Source: Pseudomonas parafulva
GTDB lineage: Bacteria; Pseudomonadota; Gammaproteobacteria; Pseudomonadales; Pseudomonadaceae
Length of the DNA: 64,000 bases
Direction: 5' to 3'
Assembly (NCBI RefSeq): GCF_000800255.1
Contig: NZ_CP009747.1
Location: 930,001 to 994,000, forward strand
The position numbers and the translations under genes were made by a program. Positions 3,729 to 23,324 of this stretch are shown piece by piece (position 1 is the stretch's first letter; every line of letters starts with the position of its first letter). A model generated the notes under the pieces. It was not told where the DNA came from, searched no databases, and worked only from the letters and a program-made list of their open reading frames with translations.

Positions 3729-4613
3729 ATGGAAATCGGTCTGCGCGAGTGGCTGATCCTCATCGGCATCATTGTCATCGCCGGTATTCTTTTCGACGGC
3801 TGGCGCCGCATGCGCGGCGGCAAGGGCAAGTTGAAGTTCCGTCTGGATCGCAGCTATTCCAACGTCGCGGACGACGAGGGCAGCGCCGAGGTGCTGGGCC
3901 CTGCGCGCGTCCTGGATACGCACAAAGAACCTGAACTGGACGAGACCGACCTGCCGTCGATGAGCGCGCCGTCCCGTGAGCGCGAGCGTGAAGCCAAGCC
4001 GGCCAAGGCCGCCAAGCGCGGCAAACGCGCCGCCAGCGACGCGCCTGCCGCCGACCTGAAGCTCTCCGCCGAGCCGCGCGAACCCGACCTGTTCGCCGAC
4101 GAGGGCGACCACTACAGCGCCGATACCAGTCGCAACAGCGGATTCGCCACCAGCAACAACGCGGCCAAGGAGCTGCCACCGGTCGAGGAAGTGCTGGTGA
4201 TCAGCGTCATTTCCCGTGACGAAGGCGGTTTCAAGGGTCCTGCGTTGCTGCAGAACATCCTCGAAAGCGGCTTGCGCTTCGGCGAAATGGACATCTTCCA
4301 CCGCCACGAAAGCATGGCCGGTCACGGCGAAGTGCTGTTCTCCATGGCCAACGCGGTCAAGCCGGGCATTTTCGACCTGGACGACATCGACCATTTCAGC
4401 ACCCGTGCGGTGAGCTTCTTCCTCGGTCTGCCAGGCCCACGCCATCCGAAGCAGGCGTTCGACGTGATGGTCGCTGCCGCACGCAAGCTGGCTCACGAAC
4501 TGGACGGCGAGCTCAAGGACGATCAACGCAGCGTGCTGACGGCGCAGACCATCGAGCACTACCGTCAGCGCATCGTCGAGTTCGAGCGCCGCGCGCTGAC
4601 CCAGAAACGCTGA
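3729..4613 (+). CDS. zipA: Cell division protein ZipA
   Basis: Bitopic inner-membrane protein that tethers FtsZ polymers to the membrane at the division site. At 294 aa it has the ZipA layout: an N-terminal anchor (about residues 6-24, rich in L/I/V), a short basic stretch (RRMRGGKGK), a charged Ala/Lys/Glu/Pro linker (about 60-150), and a C-terminal FtsZ-binding domain (about 155-294, from [16 protein letters not shown]). The ATG at 3729 puts the anchor at the extreme N terminus and has GAGG about 11 nt upstream. An in-frame upstream start (3669) would add 20 residues before the anchor and is less likely. It lies between smc and ligA, as in other pseudomonads. Confidence 0.95.
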
Positions 4614-4626
4614 AACACCCAGACTC

Positions 4627-4705
4627 AAGAGCAGCCCATGGGGATTGCGGGTCGGTTCGGGAGACACCACGTCTCCCTGACCCCCACATGACCCAGGCTG
4701 CTCTT
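4627..4705 (+). terminator. Nested palindromes between zipA and ligA
   Basis: The 115-bp gap holds a 10-bp inverted repeat, AAGAGCAGCC (4627-4636) with GGCTGCTCTT (4696-4705), followed by a pyrimidine-rich run (ttgcttttcc). Inside its loop is a second perfect stem, GGGAGAC (4659-4665) with GTCTCCC (4671-4677), extended by GGGTC/GACCC. This could be a partial terminator or attenuator after zipA, or a processing site. Only the symmetry is seen; the role is inferred. Confidence 0.5.
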
Positions 4706-4725
4706 TTGCTTTTCCAGAGACCTGA

Positions 4726-7059
<2,334 letters not shown>

Positions 7060-7136
7060 GGGTGACGCACGCCTGCGCGGACCTTGCTTGAATCGTCAAG
7101 TCATTGAGAAATGATGGGTTTTTTCACCCGCAACGG

Positions 7137-7164
7137 TTGTAACTTCCTCACGTAACGGTACAAT
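7137..7164 (+). promoter_or_regulatory. Probable sigma-70 promoter of ffs
   Basis: TTGTAA (7137-7142), a 16-bp spacer and TACAAT (7159-7164) lie just upstream of the SRP RNA gene. The mature RNA 5' end is expected about 30 nt further on, so a short leader would be trimmed. Inferred from sequence match and position only. Confidence 0.6.
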
Positions 7165-7196
7165 GGCGCGGCTCGTCACCTGATGAGCTGCGTTAT

Positions 7197-7309
7197 GGTG
7201 GCCCCACCGGTCCCCCCGCATTGATTACCCGTTAACCTGGTCAGGCCCGGAAGGGAGCAGCCACAGCGGGAACATCGAGTGCCGGGGTGTGGCTGGTGGG
7301 GCCGCCACC
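7197..7309 (+). ncRNA. ffs: 4.5S signal recognition particle RNA
   Basis: Bacterial small SRP RNA that binds Ffh and directs nascent inner-membrane proteins to FtsY. The 113-nt segment closes on itself: GGTGGCCCCACC at the 5' end pairs with GGTGGGGCCgCCACC at the 3' end with one bulge. The apical part carries the conserved SRP segment TCAGGCCCGGAAGGGAGCAG with the GGAA tetraloop, the main Ffh-binding site. A TTTCT run follows the closing stem and may terminate transcription. The 3' 73 nt are part of a 78-bp direct repeat found again at 18898-18975. Confidence 0.96.
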
Positions 7310-7314
7310 TTTCT
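7237..7314 (+). repeat. attL-like direct repeat (ffs 3' end)
   Basis: Seventy-eight bases, from CTGGTCAGG through CCACCTTTCT, are identical to 18898-18975. The match stops sharply on both sides (upstream gttaac versus gcgatc, downstream ata versus gta). Here the repeat completes an intact ffs, so this is the junction where the element restored the RNA gene. Identity was read base by base; the att-site role is inferred. Confidence 0.85.
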
Positions 7315-7590
7315 ATAAGTCCTTAATTCTAGGGGCTTTCTTCGCAAGATCTCTAAGCATGACAGCGTTTAGGTACACCTTGTGGTGCACTGTGCTGGTG
7401 ATCTTACATTGATCATTAACCTCTCACCATTAAAGCCGTTTAGGTTGAATCGCCATTGACTGGTTGCTGTGGCTGAGTGGTGGATGCGAAAGCCTATTGT
7501 GGTCTTGGCGCTCGGCAATTTTCGAATCCTAACCTCTTCGCCCTATCTAGAAAACCCTTTTAATTAAACGAGTTACTTGGTTTTTTCTGT

Positions 7591-7986
7591 TTAGGTCGTA
7601 CTACTCGATTCAGCAGGTTCAGCGGGGCTTTCCTCAAGATAGAGGCGATTGAGCAGTACACCGCACGCACGCAGCGAGTTCTGAAGCTCCACCGTTCCTT
7701 CCAGTGCCTCTCGGACCCAGCACGTTGGGTAATCTTTCTCCTGGTGCCTAAAGCCCTCGACCCTGTCGCCCCTGTTTTCATCTATGAAAGAAATCGACGC
7801 ATTGTGAACGACAAGTTGATGATGCTTGATCATGTTCATGAAGGCGTGTGTGTATCCAAACCACTCTGAGGTGAGAGCGTCCTTCAGGCGATCTTTAAGT
7901 TCTCCGACCCGAAGGACTGCTTGCACATCGTGGATATAGAATTTTTTTCTCAGTGGCGCGGTTGGTACCACAAGACCGCGTAGCAA
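7591..7986 (-). CDS. Hypothetical protein, probably a C-terminal fragment
   Basis: Open frame of up to 131 aa from a TTG; no family recognised. No ATG exists before FMNM near residue 50, and the frame is closed by a stop only five codons upstream of the TTG. That pattern fits a protein whose 5' end has been lost rather than a complete gene. It ends in an Ala/Glu/Pro/Ser-rich tail (EESPAEPAESSSTT). Base composition is lower in G+C than the core genes. It sits next to the transposase remnant at 8056-8172, which may mark the break. Existence as an expressed gene is doubtful. Confidence 0.35.
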   Translation of the reverse strand: MLRGLVVPTAPLRKKFYIHDVQAVLRVGELKDRLKDALTSEWFGYTHAFMNMIKHHQLVVHNASISFIDENRGDRVEGFRHQEKDYPTCWVREALEGTVELQNSLRACGVLLNRLYLEESPAEPAESSSTT

Positions 7987-8055
7987 CTGCCCGAAGCTGT
8001 CTTACGAGTTGCGGGTGATTGCAATACAGGCAATTAGGTTGGCTTCGCTGATTAA

Positions 8056-8172
8056 GCTCGCTTGCGCCGAATCGTCACGCGCTTCGACAAGCTCGCAAAA
8101 AGTTATGCCGCAATGGTCTCGCTGGCCTATGTCATGCGGTGTATGCGACGGTATTTTTCAGGCAGAGCCTAA
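8056..8172 (+). pseudogene. IS5-type transposase, C-terminal remnant
   Basis: Reading from 8056, the frame gives RLRRIVTRFDKLAKSYAAMV and then SLAYVMRCMRRYF, ending at TAA 8170-8172. This RR.V.R.(D/E)K.A..(Y/F).AM..LA pattern is the typical C-terminus of IS5-family DDE transposases. An in-frame stop lies immediately upstream, and no N-terminal part or catalytic residues are present. Only about 38 codons survive, so this is a scar of an insertion sequence. Family assignment rests on this short motif. Confidence 0.6.
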
Positions 8173-8214
8173 ACCCCTATTGTTCGCTCTCTATGAGCAA
8201 GCCAGTGTCGGCTG

Positions 8215-9105
8215 CGGGGGAGCACCGAGTTTGTGGACTCACCCGGCCGATGAACGCCTGGCCGCCAACCCATTCGCATGTTGGGCGAACCAGGCGTGTA
8301 TCGCCGACCAGGCCAATCTCGACATGCTGTTTTTTGCCGATGTATTGGGCTTCTACGAGGTGTTTGGCGGCAACGCCGAGGCACAGTGAAATGGGCGGTC
8401 GAAGCGCCTGCCAACGACCCACTGATGATCATTCCGGGTCTGGCTGCCATCACCCAGCACCTCGCATTCGGCGCGACTGTTTCCACGACTTACGAACAGC
8501 CGTTCAGCCATGCCCGACGGTTCAGTACCCTTGATCACATGACCAATGGGCGAATCGGCTGGAACATCGTCACCTCTTATCTATCGAGTGCAGCGCGCAA
8601 CTTTGGACTGGAGCAGATGATCAAGCATGGCGATCGGTACGAACGCGCCGAGGAATTCATGGACGTGGTCTATAAGCTCTGGGAGGGCAGTTGGGCGGAC
8701 GACGCCGTAGTTGCAAACAAAGCCCGCTAGGTATATGCGCAAGGTCATCGTGTGAAACCGATCAATCACATGGGTGAGCGTTATCGTGTGGCTGGCCCCC
8801 ATCTGACTGCGCCGTCGCCACAGCGCACGCCGTTGCTGATCCAGGCTGGCTGGTCGGGTCGAGGGCGCGAGTTCGCAGCCAAGCAGGCTGAACTGATATT
8901 CATCTCGTACATGGTGCGCCCCGATGGCAGCGGCAAGCCATTAACTGCAGGAGATGTCAGGCGGCGCTTTGCCAGCGTCACGCGTGGCACGGACCTGATC
9001 CTGGTCGGCACGCCTGCGCAGGTGGCTGACCGCATTGAAGGGCATGCTGAGGTTATTCAGGCCTGTTTCACTGAGCCGTTTTGCGTGCCGATGGCTTCGG
9101 TTTTG
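8215..9105 (+). pseudogene. Broken luciferase-like FMN monooxygenase (NtaA/DszA type)
   Basis: Pieces of one flavin-dependent monooxygenase lie in successive frames. SLWTHPADERL and LDMLFFADVLGFYEVFGG are read to the stop near 8389. The next piece, from KWAVEAPANDPLM through STLDHMTNGRIGWNIVTSYL to YKLWEGSWADDAV, is read to a stop near 8730. A third, from GERYRVAGPHLTAPSPQRTP through RGREFAAKQAELIF to GTPAQVADRIE, is read from 8752. The last piece jumps from the middle of the enzyme to LTAGDVRRRFASV, implying an internal deletion. The family (about 440-450 aa, two-component with an FMN reductase) oxidises nitrilotriacetate, dibenzothiophene sulfone and similar compounds. At least two frameshifts and a deletion make this non-functional. 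Confidence 0.85.
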
Positions 9106-9175
9106 CAGGTAGAATTTGTGGCTCTGTTCGGGGGCGTTCTCGCTCTCTTCAACCTCAAATGTGTAAGGCTTGCGT

Positions 9176-10126
9176 ATGGATCTGCGTCAACTCGAAGCTT
9201 TTGCCGCTGTCATGTCTGCCGGTAGTGTCACCGCTGCTGGGAAAATGCTTGGGCGCTCACAGCCTTCGGTCACTCGGGCCATTCAGGAGTTGGAACTGGA
9301 GCTGGGCTTTGCCCTGTTCGAGCGCAGCGGGCCAAAAGTCACCCCGACCCAAAAGGCGTTCATGATGTACGGCGAGGTGGAGAGCGCGCTGCTGGGCATC
9401 CGTAATATACGGCAGCACGCACTGCAGATCGCCGCCGAGGAAAATCGCCAGATCAAACTGGTGGCGATCTCGGCGCTGGCCTCGGGGTTGCTTCCGGCGG
9501 CACTTGCCCGACTGCCCGAGTCCCTGCGCCCACGGCAGATCCAGTTGCAAAGCATGTCGCCTGAAAACGTGGTGCAGGCAGTTCTGTCCAAAACCATGGA
9601 CTTGGGTGCGGTAAGCCTGCCGCTGGAGCACCGTGGCTTGGACATCCATTGGATCGGCGAGGCCCCTTGTGTGGCGGTGTTACCGGTTGACTCGCCGTTG
9701 GCCAGCCAAGCTCGACTGTCAATGGAATTGCTGGCGGGCCAGACCCTGGTGACCATGGCGAACCCGTACCGTTTTCGTCGGCGTATCGACAAGGCTTTCG
9801 CCGATGCCGGTTATGGCACGCCGCACATGCTCGACAGCAATACATCTCTGGTCGCAATGCAGATGGCCAGGGCAGGGCTGGGTATCGCTCTGGTCGATCC
9901 GTTCACCGCGCATGGCGTGCCGGTGGAGGGGGTGGTGGTGCGGCCTATTGCCTGCAATATTCCGTTTTTCTTCGGCTTGATCTCGGCTTTTGCCAGTCCT
10001 TTATCGGATGTGGCACGCGCGCTGGTCGATGAGGTGGCGCAGACGGCTAGGCGGCTGCTGCCTGAGATGGCCCTGCACGAGGCCAGCGCACATGACGCGC
10101 TGCTGCAAAGTATTTACGCTGAATAA
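9176..10126 (+). CDS. LysR-family transcriptional regulator
   Basis: 316 aa, a normal LysR length. The N-terminal winged helix-turn-helix (residues about 3-62, MDLRQLEAFAAVMSAGSVTA through SQPSVTRAIQELE and LFERSG) is typical, followed by a linker helix and a periplasmic-binding-like effector domain (about 90-300). ATG 9176 has TAAGG 7 nt upstream; an in-frame TTG two codons earlier is possible but has no better site. It lies on the same strand as the monooxygenase/ABC operon, about 190 bp upstream, and is the only regulator in the island, so it probably controls that operon. The inducer is unknown. The A+T-rich gap downstream may hold its operator. Confidence 0.93.
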   Translation: MDLRQLEAFAAVMSAGSVTAAGKMLGRSQPSVTRAIQELELELGFALFERSGPKVTPTQKAFMMYGEVESALLGIRNIRQHALQIAAEENRQIKLVAISALASGLLPAALARLPESLRPRQIQLQSMSPENVVQAVLSKTMDLGAVSLPLEHRGLDIHWIGEAPCVAVLPVDSPLASQARLSMELLAGQTLVTMANPYRFRRRIDKAFADAGYGTPHMLDSNTSLVAMQMARAGLGIALVDPFTAHGVPVEGVVVRPIACNIPFFFGLISAFASPLSDVARALVDEVAQTARRLLPEMALHEASAHDALLQSIYAE

Positions 10127-10139
10127 CTCCTCCTAAATT

Positions 10140-10168
10140 CAAAAAAGTTATTTAAGTATGCTTTTTTG
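10140..10168 (+). promoter_or_regulatory. Inverted repeat in the lysR-operon gap
   Basis: CAAAAAAG (10140-10147) and CTTTTTTG (10161-10168) form perfect 8-bp arms around a 13-bp A+T-rich loop, just after the LysR stop. It could be a LysR-type T-N11-A operator or a weak terminator. The rest of the gap to 10318 is A+T-rich and holds no gene. Only the symmetry is observed. Confidence 0.4.
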
Positions 10169-10318
10169 AGCATTGCGAGAATAAAAAGTGCCTCTTACTA
10201 TTCTGTTTTCGCATTCAATGGCTTAATGAATTCACATTTTTCGCCTTTTGGGTGCTCAACGACATGATCTGAATCAGGATCCGGCCCTTTCCCGACCGTC
10301 ACCCGAGTACGAAGCCCC

Positions 10319-11779
10319 ATGTCCGAAGTGAACGCCCCCGCAGGCCTTACTGCCCTGGAAACCCGCCTGCGCGAGGATCTGGCCTGGCTAGACCTGCCCG
10401 CCAGCCCCTGGGTTAAGCCCCGTGTCAGCGACGGTGAAGCGGTGCTGGAGGTGGCGATCATCGGCGGCGGCATGGCCGGCCTGGCGCTGGCCGCAGAGTT
10501 GCGCCACCAGGGCGTGGCGGCGGTTATCCTCGATCAGGCGCCGGCAGGTTTCGAAGGGCCGTGGGCCACCACCGCGCGGATGCAGACGCTGCGCTCGCCC
10601 AAGCAACTGACCGGCCCCGCGCTGGGCCTGCCGGCGCTGACCTTCCGCGCCTGGTACCAGGCGCAGTTCGGCGCCGAGGGCTGGGCGGCTCTGGACAAGA
10701 TCCCGCGCCTGCAATGGGCAGAATACCTGCGCTGGTACCGCAAGGTGCTGGGGCTCGAGGTGCGCAACCAGCACCGCGTCAGCCGCGTCACGCCGCGCGC
10801 CGACGGGCTGGTGGCACTTGAGGTGCAAAGCAACGGCCGCACCCAGCATCTGCGCGCCCGGCACGTGGTGCTGGCCACCGGACGCGACGGCCTGGGCGGG
10901 CCCTGGGTGCCGGAATTCGCCCGCGGCCTGGCGCCCGAGTTGTGGGCGCATTCGGCCGATGGCCTGCAGGATGCCTGGTTCGAAGGCAAGCGCGTGGTGG
11001 TGATCGGCGGCGGCGCCTCGGCCATGGACAGCGCGGCCACCGCCCTGGAGGCCGGTGCGCTGCAGGTCGACTTGCTGATTCGTCGGGCGGACCTACCGCG
11101 CATCAACAAGGGCAAGGGCGCCGGCAACCCCGGCATGACCCATGGCTACTGGCGCCTGCCGGACGCCTGGAAATGGCGTATCCGCAACTACCTCAACACC
11201 CAGCAGGTGCCGCCGCCACGGGGCAGCACACTGCGCGTGTCGGCCTCGCCCAATGCACGTTTTCTGCTGCAAAGCCCGGTGCTGTCGGTAGCCGTCAACC
11301 CCGCCGGCGGCCTGTGGGTGAATACCCCGCAGGCCCGCCTTGACGCCGATTTTCTGGTGTTCGCCACAGGTTTTCGCACCGACTTCAGCCTGCGCCCGGA
11401 GTTCGCCGCGTTCGCCCCGCAAATTCGCGTATGGGGTGACCGCTACCAGGCGCCGGCCGGCGAAGAGGACGCCGAGCTTGCCGAGCTGCCCGACCTTGGC
11501 AGCAGCTTCGAATTCCAGGAGAAAACCCTGGGCGCCTGCCCAGGCATTGGCCAGATCCATTGCTTCAGCTACCCGGCAGCACTGAGCTACGGCGCGGTGT
11601 CCGGGGACATCCCGGCCATCAGCGAGGGCGCCAAGCGGCTTGCCCATGCCCTGATCGGGCGGCTGTTCAACGACGACATCGAGCAGCACTTCGAGGCCAT
11701 GCGCAACTACGCCGAGCCCGAGCTGCTGGGTGATGAGTGGGTCGCCGGCGAGCCCTCCGCCGCCGAGCGGCAAGCATGA
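10319..11779 (+). CDS. FAD/NAD(P)-binding monooxygenase-like oxidoreductase
   Basis: 486 aa with two Rossmann dinucleotide folds. The first, VAIIGGGMAGLALAAEL near residue 43, binds FAD; the second, VVVIGGGASAMDSAATALEAG near 223, fits NAD(P)H. This is the layout of class B flavoprotein monooxygenases and related pyridine-nucleotide oxidoreductases. ATG 10319 is preceded by only a weak GAAG. Its stop overlaps the next start by 4 bp (ATGA at 11776-11779), so it is translationally coupled to the permease genes and very likely works on the imported compound. Substrate unknown. In related clusters this protein accompanies a luciferase-like monooxygenase, which here is broken upstream. Confidence 0.85.
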   Translation: MSEVNAPAGLTALETRLREDLAWLDLPASPWVKPRVSDGEAVLEVAIIGGGMAGLALAAELRHQGVAAVILDQAPAGFEGPWATTARMQTLRSPKQLTGPALGLPALTFRAWYQAQFGAEGWAALDKIPRLQWAEYLRWYRKVLGLEVRNQHRVSRVTPRADGLVALEVQSNGRTQHLRARHVVLATGRDGLGGPWVPEFARGLAPELWAHSADGLQDAWFEGKRVVVIGGGASAMDSAATALEAGALQVDLLIRRADLPRINKGKGAGNPGMTHGYWRLPDAWKWRIRNYLNTQQVPPPRGSTLRVSASPNARFLLQSPVLSVAVNPAGGLWVNTPQARLDADFLVFATGFRTDFSLRPEFAAFAPQIRVWGDRYQAPAGEEDAELAELPDLGSSFEFQEKTLGACPGIGQIHCFSYPAALSYGAVSGDIPAISEGAKRLAHALIGRLFNDDIEQHFEAMRNYAEPELLGDEWVAGEPSAAERQA

Positions 11780-12750
11780 TCGGCTGGGCCCTGCGCCGGC
11801 TGAGCCAGTCGCTGCTGGTGATCCTGCTGATGACCCTGGTGGTGTTCGTCGGCTTGAACGCCATCGGCAACCCCATGGACATCCTGGTGGGCGAGGACCT
11901 CAACCAGGCCGAGCGCCTGCAGGCCATCGCCCACCTAGGCCTGGACAAACCCCTGTGGGAGCAGTACCTGATCTTTCTCAAAGGTGCGCTGCACGGCAAC
12001 CTGGGGCAAAGCTTCGTTTACCATGAAGACGCCATGCGCCTGATCCTGCAGCGCCTGCCGGCCACCTTCGAGCTGGCATTCAGCGCATTGCTGCTGGCGG
12101 TGTTGATCGGCGTGCCGCTGGGCATGTTCGCCGGCTGCTACCCCGAGCACTGGCTGTCGCGGCTGATGATGGCCGGCAGCATCGTCGGCTTTTCGCTGCC
12201 GGCGTTCTGGGTGGCGCTGATGATGATCATGCTGTTCTCCATCACCCTGGGCTGGCTCCCGGCCAGCGGCCGCGGCGCCACCGCCGAGCTGCTCGGCGTG
12301 CAGTGGTCGTGGCTGACCTCGGACGGCCTGCAGCACCTGTTGCTGCCGGCCTTCAACCTGGCGCTGTTCAAGATCTCGCTGGTGCTGCGCCTGACCCGCG
12401 CCGGGGTGCGCGAGGTGCTGCCCCAAGAGTTCGTCAGGTTCGCCCGGGCCAAGGGCCTGTCGCCGCTGCGGGTGATGTGCATGCACGTGATGCGCAACAC
12501 CCTGATCCCGGTGGTGACGGTGCTGGCCATGGAGCTGGGCTCGACCATCGCCTACGCGGTGGTGACCGAAAGCATCTTTTCCTGGCCCGGCGCCGGCAAG
12601 TTGATCCTGGACAGCATCAATACCCTGGATCGCCCGGTGGTGGTGGCCTACCTGATGGTGGTGGTAGTGATTTTCGTGGTGCTCAACCTGATCGTGGACG
12701 GGCTGTACTACCTGCTCGACCCGCGCGTACGTGTGGAGGCGGGACGATGA
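11776..12750 (+). CDS. ABC transporter permease (DppB/OppB type)
   Basis: 324-aa integral membrane permease of the peptide/nickel importer family. An N-terminal membrane segment (RLSQSLLVILLMTLVVFVGL) is followed by a short periplasmic region and a core of further segments. It carries the BPD_transp_1 EAA-type loop (ARAKGLSPLRVMCMHVMRNTL, near residues 225-245). ATG 11776 overlaps the previous stop by 4 bp and its own stop overlaps the next start by 4 bp. The longer in-frame start at 11737 would lie inside the monooxygenase gene and is rejected. Confidence 0.93.
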   Translation: MIGWALRRLSQSLLVILLMTLVVFVGLNAIGNPMDILVGEDLNQAERLQAIAHLGLDKPLWEQYLIFLKGALHGNLGQSFVYHEDAMRLILQRLPATFELAFSALLLAVLIGVPLGMFAGCYPEHWLSRLMMAGSIVGFSLPAFWVALMMIMLFSITLGWLPASGRGATAELLGVQWSWLTSDGLQHLLLPAFNLALFKISLVLRLTRAGVREVLPQEFVRFARAKGLSPLRVMCMHVMRNTLIPVVTVLAMELGSTIAYAVVTESIFSWPGAGKLILDSINTLDRPVVVAYLMVVVVIFVVLNLIVDGLYYLLDPRVRVEAGR

Positions 12751-13645
12751 CGGCCGTGCTCGATACCGTGCAGGCGCGCTCGCCGTGGCGGCGGGTGGTG
12801 CAAGACTTTGTCGGTGCGCCAGCCGCCATGGTTGGCCTGGTGGTGTTGCTGGCCATCGTGCTGCTGGCGTTGCTGGCACCGTGGATCGTGGTGCAGAACC
12901 CCTACGACCTGATGCAGCTGAACGTGCTCGATGCGCGACTGGCGCCGGGCAGCGCCAACCTCGACAGCGGCTACCACTACTGGCTGGGCACCGACGGCCA
13001 GGGCCGCGACTTGGTCTCGGCGATTCTCTACGGGCTGCGCATCAGCCTGTGGGTGGGCATCGGCTCGGCGTTGATTGCCGCCGTGCTCGGCACCCTGGTG
13101 GGCCTGGTGTCGGCCTATGCCGGTGGCTGGGTGGACGCCTTGCTGATGCGCCTGGTCGACTTGCTGCTGTCGTTCCCGGCGATTCTCATGGCGTTGATGA
13201 TCCTTGCCTGGCTGGGCAAGGGCGTGGGCAACGTGATGCTCACCCTGGTACTGCTGGAGTGGGCCTACTACGCCCGCACCGCACGCGGCCAGGCCTTGAG
13301 CGAAAGCCGTCGCGAGTACGTCGATGCCGCGCGCGGGCAGGGCATCAGTCCGTGGCGCATCGTCATCGGCCATGTGCTGCCCAACTGCCTGCCGCCTTTG
13401 ATCGTCATCGGCGCATTGCAGATCGCCCGTGCCATCACCTTGGAAGCCACCTTGTCGTTCCTCGGACTTGGCGTGCCTGTGACCGAACCTTCGTTGGGGC
13501 TGCTGATTGCCAACGGCTTCCAGTACATGCTCAGCAACGAATACTGGATCAGCCTATTCCCGGGCCTGGCGCTGCTGATCACCATCGTCGCCATCAACCT
13601 GGTGGGCGACCGCCTGCGTGATGTGCTCAACCCGAGGTTACAGCG

Positions 13646-13649
<4 letters not shown>
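12747..13649 (+). CDS. ABC transporter permease (DppC/OppC type)
   Basis: Second permease of the importer, 300 aa. It has an N-terminal membrane segment (PAAMVGLVVLLAIVLLALLA), the OppC-like extracytoplasmic stretch ending HYWLGTDGQGRDLVSAILYG, then the permease domain with the coupling loop VDAARGQGISPWRIVIGHVL near residue 195. ATG 12747 overlaps the upstream stop (ATGA), and the stop overlaps the next start (ATGA), so four genes in a row are coupled this way. The long upstream extension of this frame is a shadow of dppB. Confidence 0.94.
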
Positions 13650-15644
<1,995 letters not shown>

Positions 15645-15698
15645 GCGGGCGCACCGCGCGCCCGCCATGCCTTTGCCAACGCCTACAAGGGAAACCCC

Positions 15699-17264
15699 AT
15701 GCAACCACGTGTTCGCTCGCTGCTCGCCTCGGCGCTGATTCTGGCGGCCGGTAGTGTCTCGGCGCAGGACCTGCGCATCGGCTATGCCGACCCTGTTTCA
15801 TCCCTCGACCCACAACTGAACAACTACGCCGGTGACCGCTCGGTGGCGCTGCACGCCTTCGAGTCGCTGGTCAACCGCCACGACGACAAGACCCTGCCGG
15901 GCCTGGCCAAAAGCTGGAAAGTCGTCGACCCCACCACCTGGGAGTTCACCCTGCGTGATGACGTCAAGTGGCAGGACGGCACGCCGCTGACCGCCGACGA
16001 CTTCGTGTTCTCGTTCGAGCGTGCGCGCAACGTGCCAGGCAGCGTGGCGTCCTACGCCGGCGCAACGCGCACCGTGGCCGCGGTGCAGGCCAAGGGTGAG
16101 CACACGGTGATCATCAAGACCCGCATTCCGAATGCCAACCTGCTGCCGGACGTCGACTCGATCTACATCGTCAGCCGCCATGCCGGTGCCAACGCCAGCA
16201 GCGCCGACTACAACAGCGGCAAGGCAACCATCGGCACCGGGCCTTACCGCTTCGTCTCGTACGTGCCGGGCGACCGCACAATCTTCGAACGCAACGCCAG
16301 CTACTGGGGCGCCAAACCCACCTGGGACAAGGTCGATTTTCGCTTCATCGCCAACGCCGCCAACCGCACCGCGGCCTTGCTGGCGGGCGACGTCGATGTG
16401 ATCGACAAGGTTTCGCCCACCGATGTCGAGCGGCTGCGCAAGACGCCGGGCTTCAATGTGTTCGCCTACCAGGGACTGCGCGCGCTGATCATCCAGCCAA
16501 GCTTCCGCGAGGGGCCCAACGAATTCATCCGCGACAACAGCGGCAAGTCGTTGGCGCAGAACCCGCTGCGCGATGTACGGGTGCGCCAGGCGCTATCGCT
16601 GGCGATCAACCGCCAGGCCATCGACCAGCGCATCATGCAAGGCACGGTCACCGAGGCCAACCAGTGGATGCCGGCCAATACCTTCGGCTACAACCCCGAG
16701 GTCAAGAACATCCCTTACGATCCGCAGCAAGCAAAGGCGCTGCTGGCCCAGGCTGGTTTCCCCGAAGGTTTCCAGCTCACCGTGCACGTGCCGGGCGACC
16801 GCTACCCGCAAGCGCCAGAAGCGATGCAGGCGGTGGCGCAGTTCTGGTCGCGGGTTGGTGTGAAGGTGCAGCTTGAAGTGCTGCCATGGGCGGTATATGC
16901 CGGCAAGGCCAACAAGAACGAACTGGCCGTGAGCGTGATCGCCTGGGGCAACGGTACCGGCGAGGCGGCCTATGCGCTAACCAACATCCTCACCACCGTG
17001 GACAGCGCCAAAGGGCAGGGCGCCTCCAACTGGGGCCGCTATAGCAACCCGCTGGTGGACAAGGCGCTGCTCGACTCCACCGCGGAGTTCGACGACACGC
17101 GCAGGCGCCAGATCCTCGAAGGCGCGGTAAAGGTAGTTAGCGACGACGTGGGCATCATCCCGTTGTTCCACTACCAGAACATCTGGGCTGCGCGCAAAGG
17201 CCTGAAGGTCGAACCGCTGGTCAGCGACCGCACTGCCGCGATCATGGTCACCGAACAACCTTGA
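15699..17264 (+). CDS. ABC transporter substrate-binding protein (SBP_bac_5 family)
   Basis: 521-aa periplasmic receptor for the importer. A signal peptide (RSLLASALILAAGSVSAQ, cleavage near residue 23) precedes the mature family-5 fold. Conserved pieces include LDPQLNNYAGDRSVALHAFE, the W.F.LR.DVKWQDGTPLTADD motif and GTGPYRFVSY. ATG 15699 has an AAGGGA site 8 nt upstream. Family-5 proteins bind peptides, nickel or opines, so the ligand cannot be named. The gene is placed last among the transport genes and immediately before the two CMD genes, as in KPN_01854-like clusters recalled from TIGRFAM (from memory, not searched). Confidence 0.92.
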   Translation: MQPRVRSLLASALILAAGSVSAQDLRIGYADPVSSLDPQLNNYAGDRSVALHAFESLVNRHDDKTLPGLAKSWKVVDPTTWEFTLRDDVKWQDGTPLTADDFVFSFERARNVPGSVASYAGATRTVAAVQAKGEHTVIIKTRIPNANLLPDVDSIYIVSRHAGANASSADYNSGKATIGTGPYRFVSYVPGDRTIFERNASYWGAKPTWDKVDFRFIANAANRTAALLAGDVDVIDKVSPTDVERLRKTPGFNVFAYQGLRALIIQPSFREGPNEFIRDNSGKSLAQNPLRDVRVRQALSLAINRQAIDQRIMQGTVTEANQWMPANTFGYNPEVKNIPYDPQQAKALLAQAGFPEGFQLTVHVPGDRYPQAPEAMQAVAQFWSRVGVKVQLEVLPWAVYAGKANKNELAVSVIAWGNGTGEAAYALTNILTTVDSAKGQGASNWGRYSNPLVDKALLDSTAEFDDTRRRQILEGAVKVVSDDVGIIPLFHYQNIWAARKGLKVEPLVSDRTAAIMVTEQP

Positions 17265-17328
17265 ACCCCAGGCGTTGCCCGAATCGCGCAGCCGCGGGCA
17301 ACGCTGCCAACCCAGCAGGAACCCTGCC

Positions 17329-17856
17329 ATGACTTCGAACGTCCCAACCCCCGTCGCCGTCGACATGCTCGACAGCCTCCTGCAACTGCAGCCCGGCACT
17401 GCCGAGCATGCTCTGCGTCATGCCCGTGACAAGGTCGTCTCGGCGACCCAGGCCAGCCACGCACTGTTTTTTGCCGCCGAGGGCCATAAGCTGTCGCTTT
17501 ACGAGCGTTTGTGGGTGGCGTACTACGCCGCCTACCTCACGCCGCAGGCCGCACTGGCCGCTCACTATCTTGAGCATCTGCAAGCCGAGGGCCTGGACAG
17601 CGCAGTGCTGGCCAGCCTCCACTCAGGCAACCTTGATGCGCTCGAGAATGTGCGCTTGGGCGCCATCCTTACTTTCACCCGCACCCTAATCCAGTCGCCC
17701 AGGCATGGCGACCAGACCGCACTGCGGGCTTTGCAGCAGGCAGGATTGGGTACCGAGGAAGTCGTAGTGCTGGCACAGCTGATCGCTTATTTGTCCTACC
17801 AGGTGCGCCTTGCGGCCGGCCTGGGGGCATTGTTCGCCACAGGAGACGCAGCATGA
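17329..17856 (+). CDS. CMD/AhpD-fold protein without the CxxC pair
   Basis: 175 aa, mainly helical, resembling carboxymuconolactone-decarboxylase-domain proteins of the Avi_7170 group (recalled family name). The segment YERLWVAYYAAYLTPQAALAAHY matches the first CMD helices, but the redox CxxC of AhpD is absent. ATG 17329 has CAGGA 9 nt upstream; the in-frame start at 17275 would add 18 poorly conserved residues. Its stop overlaps the next start (ATGA at 17853). Likely a partner of the following AhpD-like protein. Activity unknown. Confidence 0.75.
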   Translation: MTSNVPTPVAVDMLDSLLQLQPGTAEHALRHARDKVVSATQASHALFFAAEGHKLSLYERLWVAYYAAYLTPQAALAAHYLEHLQAEGLDSAVLASLHSGNLDALENVRLGAILTFTRTLIQSPRHGDQTALRALQQAGLGTEEVVVLAQLIAYLSYQVRLAAGLGALFATGDAA

Positions 17857-18485
17857 GCGAGACGATACGCAGCAATGGCTTTACCAACGAGGTACTAAGC
17901 TGGAAGGCTTGGCTGCCAACTGTCGAGCTGGCCAGCGCCACGCCGGAACAAGTGACTGTGCTGGAAGAGAGCCACCCACAGGCAAAAACCTCGGACTACT
18001 ACCTGACCCTGGCCCACCATCCGGCCATACTGCGTCAGCGCTCGCTAGCGTTCAACGCCATCATGTATGCGCCGGGCGGCTTGCCGCGGGCCGAGCGCGA
18101 GTTGGCAAGCACCGTGGTGTCGCGGCTGAACGAATGTATCTATTGTGCATCGGTGCATGCCCAGCGTTTTGAGCAACTCGCTAAGCGAAACGATGTCGTT
18201 GCACAGATTTTCGCTGACCCGGCTACCGCTGGAGTGAGTGAACGTGAGCAGGCTATTGTCCAGTTCTCAATCGTGCTGACGCTCGAGCCTGCTTCGCTAA
18301 ACGCGAGCCATATCGAGTCGCTTCGAGCTCAGGGGCTGGATGACGGGCAGGTGCTGGATCTCATTCATTCGATTTCTATTTTCGCGTGGGCCAACCGACT
18401 GATGCTGAATTTAGGTGAGCCGGTTTTTCCGGGGGCTCAAGAAAGCCGGGAAAATAGCTGCCCTGACGCAGTTAAGGGATTTTGA
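17853..18485 (+). CDS. AhpD-like peroxidase-related protein, 3' end altered by IS remnant
   Basis: 210 aa with the alkylhydroperoxidase signature ECIYCASVHAQR near residues 91-102 (E..C..C..H), so the redox Cys pair and His are present. The family fold appears complete up to NLGEPVFP (about residue 192). The remaining tail (GAQESRENSCPDAVKGF) is read from the reverse strand of an IS256-type transposase remnant, and the stop codon itself lies inside that remnant. The protein may still be active because only the extreme C terminus is foreign. Last gene of the coupled operon. Role in thiol-dependent peroxide reduction is inferred from the motif. Confidence 0.85.
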   Translation: MSETIRSNGFTNEVLSWKAWLPTVELASATPEQVTVLEESHPQAKTSDYYLTLAHHPAILRQRSLAFNAIMYAPGGLPRAERELASTVVSRLNECIYCASVHAQRFEQLAKRNDVVAQIFADPATAGVSEREQAIVQFSIVLTLEPASLNASHIESLRAQGLDDGQVLDLIHSISIFAWANRLMLNLGEPVFPGAQESRENSCPDAVKGF

Positions 18486-18702
18486 GATCGACATCGCCAG
18501 CGCGGGTTTGCCAGAGGCGATCATGGTAGCCGTTGCGGCTATTTATCCAGTCAGCGCTTTTAACGTCGAAGCCGGCGCCGCACAGACTTTCGACATCGAA
18601 TTCCATCATGCGCTGGGCAACGAACTGGATCATTTGCTTGAGCAGATCAGCGTCTGACCCTTCCTCAGCCAACTCGGTCAGTGCGATAGTGGGCTTGGTC
18701 AT
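18415..18702 (-). pseudogene. IS256-family transposase remnant
   Basis: From ATG 18702 leftward the frame reads MTKPTIALTELAEEGSDADL, then QMIQFVAQRMMEFDVESLCG and RLWQTRAGDVDLKIP. This is the typical N-terminus of IS256-family (mutator-type) transposases. The Lys codon expected next is TAA. The same frame then continues LRQGSYFPGFLEP, still recognisable, before similarity ends near 18415. So about 95 codons of a roughly 400-codon gene remain, with a nonsense mutation, and the DDE catalytic domain is missing. Part of the IS leader probably extends right toward about 18840; the outer end could not be fixed. Confidence 0.85.
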
Positions 18703-18897
18703 CGTGGTTTCCCTGGTGAGTGTTAGGTCTTCGCAAATTCAACGTTAGCCAAGAACCACGATGACCACTCTCTTTCGCCCACAGGGCGCCTTCGGCTGGT
18801 TCAGTTACACCACTTCTCGGGACACGATCTCTGCCTGAAATCGTTGATCCATAATCGTTGCATTGATAAACGGATTCCCGAGCATGTTCGCTGCGAT

Positions 18898-18975
18898 CTG
18901 GTCAGGCCCGGAAGGGAGCAGCCACAGCGGGAACATCGAGTGCCGGGGTGTGGCTGGTGGGGCCGCCACCTTTCT
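18898..18975 (+). repeat. attR-like direct repeat (partial ffs copy)
   Basis: Exact 78-bp copy of 7237-7314, holding the SRP RNA Ffh-binding loop and 3' strand but not the 5' strand. It cannot fold as an SRP RNA and has no ffs promoter. It marks the right border of the island; bases beyond it (gtagcagc) presumably were next to ffs before insertion. Confidence 0.85.
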
Positions 18976-19193
18976 GTAGCAGCAAAATCCCTCGCCACGT
19001 CCCCCCTCACCCGCACCCCATGCCACCCGCCGCATGCGATTTCGTGCAGCCCCTCCCAACTCCAACTGCCGCAACTGGACAACTCAAAACACCCTTGCTA
19101 GTTTCCCCGAGCCATATGTTTCAACGTGTAACTACGGCGCGAAACTGACATTGAAGTGCTATCACTTCACCCACTCGGCAAGGACGCAATCCC

Positions 19194-20240
19194 ATGAAAA
19201 GCTTGCAAGGCCTCCCCAGTCTCATCAGCGCGTCGGTGGGTACGCCCGGCAAGGCGCGCAACTTGCCAGCCGATGTCCAGTGCATTCAATACCTCTTCAA
19301 CCTGATCGGCACGCAGCTGGGTTTTCCGCTGCCGGAAAATGGCCGCTGCGATAACCAGTTGGTGCAGCGCATCAGCCAATACCAGTTCCGCCAACTCAAG
19401 TACGCGCACCCCGATGGGGTGGTGGACCCCCGGGGGCGTACCTTCAACAGCCTCATCGAACAGGCCGTGCGGGTGCCGGTCAAGCTCAGCCCGGCGCTGC
19501 GCCTGCCCACCTTCGTCAATGCCTTCGCCAACAACGGCAATGCCCAGGTGCAGGGCACGGTCAATCATTACCTGGACCGGGTACGGGCGATGATCGAGGC
19601 CGAGCGGCGCAATCGGGAGATGGTGTTGCAGGTCACCTGCGACGGTAATACCAGCCTCAGCGACACCGACTTCGAGAATGCCGCCAAGCGATTGGGCAAC
19701 GGGATCTCGGCCAACCTGATCAAAGCCTTCGCCACCGTGGAATCCGGTGGTCGATCAGGCTTCGGTCCGGCCCGGTTGCCGGTGATCGCGTTCGAAGGCC
19801 ATATCTTTCAACGGCTGACCAAGCACAAGTACGACCAGACCCACCCGCTGCTGTCGTACAAGTATGTGAGAAAGGCCGGACCGCAATGGCAGGTCAACAA
19901 CAAGGACCAGACCAAGGCCTGGGAAACCATGGCCACAGCGTTCGGTTTGGATCAAGACGCCGCCTTGCAGTCGGCCTCCTGGGGCATGTTCCAGATGATG
20001 GGGTTCAACTTCGCCGATTGCGGTCATGCCAATGTGTTTGAATTCGTCGCGGCCATGAAACTCAACGCCGGCAAGCAACTCGATGGCTTCCTCGGCTTCT
20101 GTGCAAAACGCCCAGCCTTCATCAAGGCCGCCAAGAACAAGGATTATGTCGGCATGGCCACCAGTTACAACGGCTCGGATTATGGCGACTACGACGTGCG
20201 TATCAAGAAAGCCTACGAAGCACTCGAAGGGAAGAAATGA
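19194..20240 (+). CDS. N-acetylmuramidase-domain protein, candidate secreted effector
   Basis: 348 aa. The C-terminal 180 residues match the N-acetylmuramidase family (DUF3380): ATVESGGRSGFGPARLP with the probable catalytic Glu near residue 182, FEGHIFQRLT, and SASWGMFQMMGFNF, a GMFQ/G-F motif as in phage endolysins. The N-terminal half (about 15-100) looks like a peptidoglycan-binding-type helical domain (ADVQCIQYLFNLIG ... DGVVDPRGRTFNSLI). There is no signal peptide. ATG 19194 has AAGGA 8 nt upstream. The next gene, 2 nt away, encodes an exported protein. This pairing suggests a type VI secretion-type cell-wall toxin with its immunity protein; a prophage endolysin remnant is the alternative, but no phage genes flank it. 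Confidence 0.8.
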   Translation: MKSLQGLPSLISASVGTPGKARNLPADVQCIQYLFNLIGTQLGFPLPENGRCDNQLVQRISQYQFRQLKYAHPDGVVDPRGRTFNSLIEQAVRVPVKLSPALRLPTFVNAFANNGNAQVQGTVNHYLDRVRAMIEAERRNREMVLQVTCDGNTSLSDTDFENAAKRLGNGISANLIKAFATVESGGRSGFGPARLPVIAFEGHIFQRLTKHKYDQTHPLLSYKYVRKAGPQWQVNNKDQTKAWETMATAFGLDQDAALQSASWGMFQMMGFNFADCGHANVFEFVAAMKLNAGKQLDGFLGFCAKRPAFIKAAKNKDYVGMATSYNGSDYGDYDVRIKKAYEALEGKK

Positions 20241-21383: not shown

Positions 21384-23324
21384 ATGCAACCTGAACATTA
21401 CGATTTCGCCACCGCCGCCTTTTTGCCGGTCAGTCTGGAGGTGTGCCAGGCCCTGCTCGACGACGCCAGTGCCCTGGACGGTCTGAGCGACCCGGAGCTG
21501 GCTGCGCTGCTGGTGATCCAGAACCTGGCGCAGGCGCGCGAGCAGGTGCTCGATCCGACCGCGGCCGAGCGGGTGCTGGTCAAGCTGTTGCACTGGTCGG
21601 TCCATGGTCCGCATTCGGCAGGGGTGACCCTGACGTCCGAGGCGCAGCGCCTGTTCGACGCCCACAAGCTGTATTTCGGCCTGGAACTGCTCAAGGGCTC
21701 GCGCCTGCACCTGATGGACGCCGAGGAGGTGGCCGAGCGCGCTTACCTGCTGCCCGACGGCACCTGGGACACGCGCTTTCGCGCGCAGCGTCACCAGGCC
21801 CACAACCCGTTCAGCCAGCAGGCCATCACCGGCTTCAACAAGGAGCGCTGGCTCACCACCGAGCAGGACAAGCTGCTGCGCGTGCTGCGTGCCAATCCCG
21901 ACGAGGACCTGCACGTGCAGGGCTATGCCGGCATCGGCAAGAGCTACCTGCTCGGTGCGCTGATCGACTGCCTGCCCAAAGGCCGGGTGCTGGCCCTGGC
22001 GCGCACACCGAACAAGCTCGACGCCCTGCGCCGCCGAATCGGTAGCGGCTCGCGCGCCGGCAAGACCTTCGCCGAGTTCGCCCAGGCCCTGATCAGCGGC
22101 CCCGGCGGCTATGCGCCGCGCTCGCCAGCGCGGTTGCCGAGCAAGCGTGCGGTCGCCGAACGCCTGGCGATCATGGGCTTTCGTCAGTACGACGGCGAGA
22201 AGACCCTGGATATCGCGCTGGAAGTACTCAAGCGCTACTGCGAATCGCGCGAGCACAGCCTCAGCGCCCAGCACCTGCCGCACTTCGCCCAAGCGTTGAG
22301 TCGCGCCGACGCCCAGGTGCTGCTCGAGTACACCAGTCGCCTGTGGCTTTACGTGCAGGATCATCCCGCCTGGGACCGCCAGACCGGTTTCGCCACGCTG
22401 CTGCTGCTCAAGCGCGCCAGCCTGTCCGGCCACAGCGTGCCGAGCCGTTACAGCCATGTGATCGTCGACGAAAGCCAGGACATGCCCGGCCCGCTGCTGC
22501 AGATCATCGAGCGCGGTCGTCAGGTGCTGATCACCCTGGGCGACGAGTACCAGCGTGCCGACGGCCCAGGGCTGCGCCGCGGTCGCCAGGTGCGCCAGCG
22601 CGACATTGCCTTCTCGGTGCGCTGCGGGCAAAAAGTCGAGAAGTTGATCAATCCGCTGATCGGCATGCACTCGAACAAGTCCAAGCTGGCGTTCGAGGGC
22701 GCCGGCAGCGTCGAGGTGGGCATCGAGTACTATCCGCTGGACTTCGTGCCCCCGCCTGGTTGCGTGGTGCTGACCGCTTCGCTGTGGGACTCGATGAAGT
22801 GGGCCCTGCAATTGGCCGACAACCAGTGCCAGGTCGGTTTCGCCGACAACCCGGCGATGAAGCGCTTCATGCACAGCGCCGTGCAGTTGTTCCGCGCCGA
22901 CCTGTATGGCGCAGGCAGCGAGGGCGAGCAGACTCACCCGGCGTTCGCCCATGCGTTGAACTGGCGGCAGGTGCAAGACGAGCATCGCTATGACGAGTCG
23001 TTCCTGTGGGTCGAGGCGCGCTTGCAGGCCGGTTTTCGCATCGCCGACCTCAACGCCCTGGCCACGCGCTTCAGTCAGGACCCCGGCAGCCTGCTGCTGA
23101 TGCCGGCGCAGGAGGCCGGCGGTCAGGAGTTCGACCGCGTGCTGCTGACCCAGGAACTGATGGCGCTCAGCCCGTTCCAGGACGCCTACGCCTTCGACAG
23201 CCGCCTGTGCGCGGTGTACATCGCCCTGTCACGGGCGCGCCGCCACCTCTATCTGCCCTATGACGTGGAAGAGTGGGTGGCCTATCACAAAGGCCGCACG
23301 TTCCGGCAGTCGCATGGCTATTGA
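21384..23324 (+). CDS. UvrD/Rep-like superfamily 1 helicase-related ATPase
   Basis: 646 aa. A Walker A-like motif GYAGIGKSYL is near residue 180, Walker B with the UvrD-type Q motif VIVDESQDMPG near 360, the motif III-like LGDEYQRADG near 385, and the C-terminal motif VI-like YIALSRARRHLYLP near 615. These place it among SF1A UvrD/Rep-like proteins. The N-terminal 150 residues are unlike UvrD (a TPA-like nuclease domain was not seen). The gene ends 7 bp inside the convergent gene at 23318. Biological role unknown; repair and RNA/DNA unwinding are both possible. Confidence 0.8.
   Translation: MQPEHYDFATAAFLPVSLEVCQALLDDASALDGLSDPELAALLVIQNLAQAREQVLDPTAAERVLVKLLHWSVHGPHSAGVTLTSEAQRLFDAHKLYFGLELLKGSRLHLMDAEEVAERAYLLPDGTWDTRFRAQRHQAHNPFSQQAITGFNKERWLTTEQDKLLRVLRANPDEDLHVQGYAGIGKSYLLGALIDCLPKGRVLALARTPNKLDALRRRIGSGSRAGKTFAEFAQALISGPGGYAPRSPARLPSKRAVAERLAIMGFRQYDGEKTLDIALEVLKRYCESREHSLSAQHLPHFAQALSRADAQVLLEYTSRLWLYVQDHPAWDRQTGFATLLLLKRASLSGHSVPSRYSHVIVDESQDMPGPLLQIIERGRQVLITLGDEYQRADGPGLRRGRQVRQRDIAFSVRCGQKVEKLINPLIGMHSNKSKLAFEGAGSVEVGIEYYPLDFVPPPGCVVLTASLWDSMKWALQLADNQCQVGFADNPAMKRFMHSAVQLFRADLYGAGSEGEQTHPAFAHALNWRQVQDEHRYDESFLWVEARLQAGFRIADLNALATRFSQDPGSLLLMPAQEAGGQEFDRVLLTQELMALSPFQDAYAFDSRLCAVYIALSRARRHLYLPYDVEEWVAYHKGRTFRQSHGY

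What the first reader, a model, noticed from the sequence alone, without database searches (positions are those of the whole stretch)
7237..18975. Island bounded by identical 78-bp copies of the SRP RNA 3' end
The 3' two thirds of ffs are duplicated exactly 11,661 bp apart, and the left copy completes a working gene. Essential RNA genes rarely serve as insertion sites for such islands, and the SRP Ffh-binding loop would be the crossover region. No integrase is visible, so the element seems stranded. The exact identity of the repeats suggests selection, gene conversion or a fairly recent event, in contrast with the decayed IS pieces inside.
Basis: partly seen in the sequence, partly recalled or inferred. 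Interest (0 to 1): 0.75.

Follow-up and report, generated by a model that had tools for sequence, protein, structure and literature searches.

The report
Stranded mobile island in SRP-RNA gene
A stretch of DNA that probably once moved by itself sits inside the gene for an essential cell RNA, which it repairs by supplying a replacement end; its own mover enzyme is gone, but related Pseudomonas carry fuller versions at the same spot.

Summary
The block between is a defective member of a family of integrative islands that use ffs as attachment site. At the same junction G189 has an empty site, G024 a 2.4-kb remnant, G259 a 13.5-kb island. Of 27 sister islands fetched, 19 carry a full-length tyrosine integrase, 17 of them beside the right repeat. 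The window keeps the family's left end (7315 to about 7458) and right end (18832-18897) but no integrase, nor has its genome a relative of it. An IS256 fragment and a 9.3-kb block (LysR, flavin monooxygenase, Opp-type transporter), which other Pseudomonas carry elsewhere, fill its place. ffs is no rare site here: 34 of 398 genus genomes have the left-end motif behind ffs, 30 of 398 a close integrase. The repeats' identity probably reflects the need for a foldable SRP RNA plus gene conversion, not recency alone. ffs targeting has precedents (pneumococcal prophages PPH015, Tn7-like I-F3b transposons); I saw no description of this Pseudomonas family in the papers my searches listed.

The parts
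7196..7314 (+). Working ffs (small SRP RNA) gene, a chimera: chromosomal 5' part up to about 7236, element-borne 3' part from 7237
   Evidence: Rfam RF00169 78 bits at 7205-7301; 7196-7345 folds to a long rod plus hairpin, z -5.27; repeat border. That it is transcribed is inferred
7237..7314 (+). Left direct repeat (attL side), restores ffs 3' two thirds
   Evidence: 78/78 identity to 18898-18975
7317..7338 (+). Terminator-like hairpin carried by the element just after the restored ffs (AAGTCCTT...)
   Evidence: fold -9.2 kcal/mol, z -1.92, 8 of 200 shuffles as good, so modest; same place and motif in relatives; 34 of 398 genus genomes
7315..7458 (.). Left end of the element, shared with other ffs islands
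   Evidence: blastn to L027, L017, L004 and others; 49.2% GC for 7315-8161 against 65.1% for the window
7591..7986 (-). ORF of 131 aa, no family found; may be element or cargo remnant
   Evidence: no Pfam, NCBIfam or PHROG match
8162..9120 (+). Luciferase-like monooxygenase pseudogene (frameshift and internal deletion against a 460-aa relative)
9170..10126 (+). LysR-type regulator
   Evidence: Pfam PF00126, PF03466
10319..11779 (+). Flavin-dependent oxidoreductase, monooxygenase-like
   Evidence: Pfam Pyr_redox_3, Lys_Orn_oxgnase
11737..12750 (+). Opp/Dpp/Nik-type ABC permease B
   Evidence: NCBIfam matches, all below their cut-offs
12747..13649 (+). Opp/Dpp/Nik-type ABC permease C
   Evidence: NCBIfam matches, all below their cut-offs
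13646..14653 (+). ABC ATPase D
   Evidence: NCBIfam matches, those shown below their cut-offs
14643..15644 (+). ABC ATPase F
   Evidence: NCBIfam matches, those shown below their cut-offs
15699..17264 (+). Periplasmic substrate-binding protein, family 5
   Evidence: PF00496 5.2e-91
17275..17856 (+). CMD-domain-like protein
   Evidence: TIGR04029 86.7 bits, below cut-off 100.75
17853..18485 (+). Peroxidase-related (CMD) protein; 3' end replaced at about 18431-18434 by IS sequence
   Evidence: TIGR01926 206.9 bits; homology to L167, L168 and L169 stops at 18430-18432
18434..18829 (-). Truncated IS256-family element (transposase N-terminal part and one end)
   Evidence: same borders 18434 and 18829 against a plasmid and G117
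18832..18897 (.). Right end of the element: degenerate ffs 5'-arm mimic, with a decayed palindrome at about 18882-18894
   Evidence: alignments to other right ends; 45.6% GC for 18830-18897
18898..18975 (+). Right direct repeat (attR side), displaced original ffs 3' end
18976..20240 (+). Chromosomal right flank with gene 19194-20240; its homologous region follows the single ffs of G189

Best explanation
7237-18975 is a stranded integrative island that entered ffs by site-specific recombination. The tyrosine integrase of this family recombines the element's ffs-like attP with the ffs gene in the part that encodes the Ffh-binding loop. The element thereby gives the gene a new 3' two thirds and a new hairpin behind it, and the original 3' end is displaced to the far side. 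Here the integrase was later lost: an IS256 copy lies 68 bp from the right repeat, between att site and the place of the integrase gene, and a metabolic block that abuts this IS piece (oxidoreductases plus peptide-type ABC importer) now fills the space. Shown: the repeats, both family ends, the empty site, the integrase next to ffs in relatives, no match to it in this genome. Inferred: the recombination itself, the crossover point, the order of IS insertion and integrase loss, and that the repeats stay identical through selection for a foldable SRP RNA plus gene conversion.
For: Exact 78-bp repeat with a complete left ffs. Empty site in G189; at the same junction a 2.4-kb island in G024 and a 13.5-kb island in G259. 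The window's two ends match ends of other ffs islands. Of 27 fetched island loci, 19 have a full-length tyrosine integrase and 18 a member of a resolvase-type cluster. Among the named loci, 33 of the 36 at 56% identity or more (L043-L077, L080) have an ffs 3' end 125-224 bp upstream of the integrase; L068, L077 and L080 do not. The 19-row alignment keeps R274, K307, H377, R380, H403 and Y413 in every row (their catalytic roles are recalled). No integrase relative in G000 while G089 and G259 gave strong matches in the same search. G024 keeps a 56-residue integrase remnant beside its right ffs end, an intermediate of decay.
Against: No excision or integration was observed. No window sequence matches the integrase, so family membership of this copy rests on about 144 bp at the left and 66 bp at the right plus the repeat. 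The nearest relative by right flank (G257, 88%) has ffs followed by a different piece of about 1.1 kb, so the local history is not simple. The right copy starts at the same place as in the window, within a few bases, in only 14 of 25 sister loci. The 78-bp identity alone would also fit a recent duplication.
Confidence: 0.92

Rival explanations
1. A Tn7-like (type I-F3b CRISPR-associated) transposon inserted beside ffs.
For: Such transposons use ffs as an att site (passage read in PMC11406308; a Vibrio cholerae case in PMC9608740, passages).
Against: No Tns, TniQ or Cas match among the 14 island ORFs scanned in Pfam or NCBIfam. The insertion duplicates 78 bp of ffs and restores the gene, whereas Tn7-type elements make a short target duplication (recalled). 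Sister islands carry a tyrosine integrase instead.
Confidence: 0.02
2. A duplication of the ffs end plus capture of DNA by IS256 or by homologous recombination, with no site-specific recombinase ever involved.
For: An IS256 fragment lies near the right edge and the cargo block is a chromosomal Pseudomonas locus elsewhere.
Against: The IS lies inside the right end, 68 bp from the repeat, and both outer ends are those of integrase-bearing ffs islands. A repeat border at or near the same base recurs in 14 of 25 sister loci.
Confidence: 0.04
3. A point about timing that does not exclude the main reading: the element is recent and the exact repeats simply reflect too little time to diverge.
For: 78 of 78 identical; 17 of 25 compared left/right pairs (24 relatives plus the window) have no mismatch over 65 nt.
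Against: In the same copy the palindrome next to the repeat has decayed, the integrase is gone, the monooxygenase is a pseudogene and the IS is truncated. In eight right copies the 5' ffs arm itself stands where others have the palindrome, which looks like conversion from the left gene.
Confidence: 0.2

Closest known systems
Tyrosine-integrase genomic islands in tRNA and tmRNA genes (Islander type)
   Same: Target RNA gene is split and restored by the element; the displaced fragment marks the far end; integrase in relatives (start of the abstract of PMC4383910 seen in the listing).
   Different: Target is ffs; the integrase is lost in the window; the right end carries an ffs-arm mimic with a palindrome.
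Streptococcus pneumoniae prophage group PPH015, integrated in ffs
   Same: ffs as attB, near identical flanking att cores (passages of PMC8637289 read).
   Different: A pneumococcal phage of about 39 kb with a core of 21-22 bp unlike this sequence; here a small island with a 78-bp repeat that includes the Ffh-binding loop.
Tn7-like I-F3b CRISPR-associated transposons at ffs
   Same: Use ffs as an att site (passage).
   Different: RNA-guided transposition machinery; no restored duplicate of the gene (recalled).
Integrase-bearing ffs islands of Pseudomonas and other Gammaproteobacteria found here (type A and type B)
   Same: Same site; type A has the same ends.
   Different: They keep the integrase and carry other cargo; of ten large cargo proteins tested, seven matched anti-phage defence models at 90 bits or more.

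Membership tests
RNA-gene integrative island (tyrosine integrase) | Direct repeat containing the 3' end of the target RNA gene, gene intact on one side | tested here: met
RNA-gene integrative island (tyrosine integrase) | Empty site in a relative with a single target followed by the outer flank | tested here: met
   G189
RNA-gene integrative island (tyrosine integrase) | Integrase gene inside the element | tested here: not met
   no relative in the window island or genome; present in 19 of 27 fetched sister loci. So this copy is called a defective remnant, not an intact member
Type A ffs-island family defined here | Shared left-end and right-end sequences | tested here: met
Type A ffs-island family defined here | Intact palindrome about three bases from the repeat | tested here: not met
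   decayed in the window; 33 of 44 right copies examined hold it in strict form, the window and ten others do not, so it is common but not defining
Type A ffs-island family defined here | Site-specific excision and integration | not testable with these tools
   needs wet work
Tn7-like transposon at ffs | tnsABC/tniQ genes | tested here: not met
   none among the 14 island ORFs scanned
ICE or IME | Relaxase or conjugation genes | tested here: not met
   none among the 14 window island ORFs scanned; not tested systematically in the relatives

The most novel reading that the evidence does not exclude
ffs is a standing exchange site for one essential RNA. The elements carry a captured ffs copy whose 5' arm is interrupted, at the crossover border, by a palindrome kept through paired changes. 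Each integration swaps the 3' two thirds of the host SRP RNA for the element's version, so the SRP RNA evolves by horizontal part-replacement, held to foldable matches and levelled by gene conversion. Two integrase lineages, with the gene at opposite ends of the element, would have turned to ffs from tRNA or tmRNA targets independently.
Probability: 0.35. Interest if true: 0.68.

Novelty: new variant of a known kind. Interest (0 to 1): 0.52.

Why it matters
It points to an integration hotspot for small islands in Pseudomonas outside tRNA and tmRNA genes, and shows how an essential RNA gene can tolerate it. It gives borders for finding such islands, several with defence-type cargo, warns that the displaced ffs end can be called a second SRP RNA gene, and offers integrases with an uncommon chromosomal target.

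Tried and rejected
Phage records hold no match to the ffs query and only distant relatives of the integrase (13 records, all under 60% identity); plasmid records likewise (81 records, all under 60%). A degenerate tRNA-like stretch near 7465-7545 was not called by ARAGORN or Rfam and was left. A tRNA target for the window island was rejected: no tRNA in the window. That one ancestral switch to ffs explains both integrase lineages could not be excluded: AU p 0.0504. Whether the right end's ffs mimic follows the host allele was looked at by eye and not claimed (L006 does not follow). The palindrome covariation used 16 distinct strings that I chose because they hold the palindrome in one register; the decayed window copy, the eight right copies with the ffs arm instead (L017-L020, L022, L054, L059, L070) and others in a shifted register (such as L016, L025, L057, L061) were left out, so it shows how the palindrome varies where present. 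Nine named loci missed the motif filter (L050, L053, L056, L062, L064, L065, L072, L073, L076) and are not in the 44 right copies counted; some of the 44 are the same genome fetched twice under two names. L077 was dropped from the tree as too short; L080 (82% over residues 199-431, no ffs) is a very long branch, perhaps a damaged copy or a wrong frame of mine. A paper on permuted SRP RNA in Thermoproteus was looked at in passages and describes no such island.
Full report
What is there. The left one completes an SRP RNA gene that scores 78 bits against Rfam; the right one, with a foreign 5' part, scores 40.2 bits at a 40-bit threshold. The left gene folds as a long rod, with a second hairpin directly behind it that lies in element DNA. 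In the whole genome these are the only two matches to the ffs query. The genus is Pseudomonas: genome G089 of the same genus has a contig of 82,535 bases with the integrase at 4386-5678, the same as the record of P. putida 31303.

Comparison with relatives. A search of 298 genus genomes, the window's included, with the ffs region found a match in 296; besides the window's genome, 36 showed two matches (which scored at most two candidates a genome; places). I fetched 27 of those 36 places; nine (G007, G050, G057, G129, G169, G178, G232, G270, G280) were not fetched. In 25 loci both copies are in view; in 14 of them the right copy begins within a few bases of the window's border, in eight (L017-L020, L022-L024, L026) it shares more of the 5' part, and in three (L016, L025, L028) less. 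Thirteen genomes with one match were also fetched (L030-L042); five show AAGTCCTT behind ffs and L036 a one-base variant, so a single match does not mean an empty site.

Empty and filled sites. In G189 the region homologous to the window's right flank resumes about 105 bases after the single ffs match, and the first bases behind ffs share CAGCAAAATCCC with the window. In G024 and G259 the same flank lies 100-131 bases behind the second ffs end. So the junction is empty in one relative, holds a 2.4-kb remnant in another and a 13.5-kb island in a third. G257, the closest by flank, has a different piece of about 1.1 kb there.

The family. In 19 of the 27 island loci there is a full-length tyrosine integrase; L021 and L026 have fragments in the same cluster and L007 (G024) a 56-residue remnant. 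Two forms exist: type A (17 loci) lies at the right end and reads inward, type B (L023, L024) lies at the left end just after ffs. A protein of a resolvase-type cluster is found in 18 of 27 loci; three members tested gave resolvase or DNA-invertase matches. Pfam places one tested integrase of each type in Phage_integrase; DUF6538 is clear in the type B one but below its cut-off in the type A one (24 against 27 bits). Of 40 island proteins of 350 aa or more that are not integrases, I gave ten to PADLOC: seven matched defence models at 90 bits or more, among them Dsr1, Hachiman HamB, an RT-protease type, TmtA and candidate PDC families; one (L018) matched only weakly and two not at all. One CBASS-like cyclase was seen in Pfam. 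The ORFs of the sister islands gave no match inside the window's island except at the left end.

How general. The first group is all Pseudomonas but one Moraxellaceae MAG; the second includes Pseudomonas, Stutzerimonas, Halopseudomonas, Neptuniibacter, Pontibacterium and Chromohalobacter. One viral-collection contig of the 44 found (L122) is type A with ffs; the other 43 were not tested. Of the 26 loci without ffs, scanned for tRNA or tmRNA, 15 have such a gene upstream of the integrase. In the tree of 79 rows, type B is one clade (100/100); the type A rows lie in one clade with L068, whose contig ends too early to tell. Holding both ffs groups together costs 25.3 log units, p-AU 0.0504, so two separate switches to ffs are favoured but not shown. 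In the genus sample, 34 of 398 genomes have the left-end motif behind ffs, against none for the pattern read backwards; 30 of 398 have the integrase at E <= 1e-100.

Why this copy is stranded. The window's left end aligns with sister islands from 7315 to about 7458 and its right end from 18832 to 18897. Between them nothing resembles the integrase, and the genome has no relative of it at E <= 0.001, while G089 and G259 gave strong hits in the same search. An IS256-family piece runs from 18434 to 18829, ending 68 bases before the repeat, where sister islands have the stretch between repeat and integrase start. To its left is a 9.3-kb block. In one search, 65 of 253 scored genomes (the window's included) matched some part of the query and 145 were not scored; ten others hold 8 kb or more of it at 77-81% identity. 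In five of these ten it lies on the contig of ffs but at least 0.78 Mb away, in three on another contig; for G085 and G022 the ffs place was not listed, but the 14 kb around the block in G085 hold no ffs. The homology of the block stops at 18430-18432, inside the last CMD gene. The luciferase-like monooxygenase left of it is a pseudogene.

Why the repeats are identical. Over 65 bases, 17 of 25 left/right pairs (24 relatives and the window; L013, L028 and L029 were not compared) show no mismatch; the summed mismatches are 36, against a mean of 124 and a minimum of 80 in 20,000 re-pairings between genomes. Relatedness of genomes is not controlled in that test. By inference, the element-borne tail must pair with the chromosomal 5' strand to give a working RNA, and the displaced tail was matched to the same strand; this alone favours likeness. 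Gene conversion is suggested because in the window the neighbouring palindrome has decayed while the 78 bases have not, and because in eight right copies the ffs 5' arm stands where others have the palindrome. L009, L010, L016, L025 and L026 differ by 4 to 10 bases, so the levelling is not complete.

The right end. Of 44 right copies looked at (the window's included; some genomes counted twice), 37 have an ffs-arm-like stretch such as GCAACGAT or GCATTGAT upstream of the repeat and 33 a strict palindrome such as GCATGC-NN-GCATGC, mostly three bases from it. In 16 distinct strings chosen because they contain it, 4 of 6 pairs show changes on both sides, 97.9% of cells pair, and none of 500 shuffles reaches the covariation score (selection told under Tried and rejected). 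It may be an integrase or accessory-factor site; its role is not shown.

What is known. Passages read show that pneumococcal prophage group PPH015 integrates into ffs (PMC8637289) and that I-F3b transposons use ffs (PMC11406308; PMC9608740). Term searches inside a 2025 survey of Pseudomonas islands (PMC12629846), a 2026 integrase paper (PMC12884075) and the Pf-5 mobile-element paper (PMC2647930) found no mention of ffs. Searches for ffs or SRP RNA together with integrase, island or attachment terms listed no paper that names this family by title or abstract start; I saw 15 of 15, 20 of 83, 20 of 282, 20 of 51, 20 of 252, 20 of 539 and 25 of 325 papers. DUF6538 with integrase gave none. The 2020 target survey by the TIGER authors is not held (recalled), so an earlier listing of ffs as an integrase target there cannot be excluded.

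Noticed in passing
window 7465-7545: A stretch that looks by eye like a worn serine/leucine tRNA; neither ARAGORN nor Rfam calls it.
   Followed up: partly
window 21384-23321: Encodes a protein 54-56% identical to proteins carried inside ffs islands L018 and L028 and with relatives behind ffs in L032, L038 and L039; genes seem to pass between island and neighbourhood.
   Followed up: partly
L014 (G184) 5000-7174: An ffs island carries a protein with a Pfam tape-measure match (TMP_3); with a KilAC-domain protein in L008 this hints at phage-satellite traits in the family.
   Followed up: no
islands L003-L027: The resolvase-type protein belongs to clearly different sequence types in different islands (compare L003, L006, L017, L023), as if exchanged as a module.
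   Followed up: no
L030 (G257) 1308-2255: Nearest relative by flank has a 315-aa ORF between ffs and the flank gene, without a second ffs end.
   Followed up: no
G007 C24:50533-50680: The two ffs matches in this genome lie about a dozen bases apart and overlap in the query, as if one ffs held a short internal duplication or an assembly fault.
   Followed up: no
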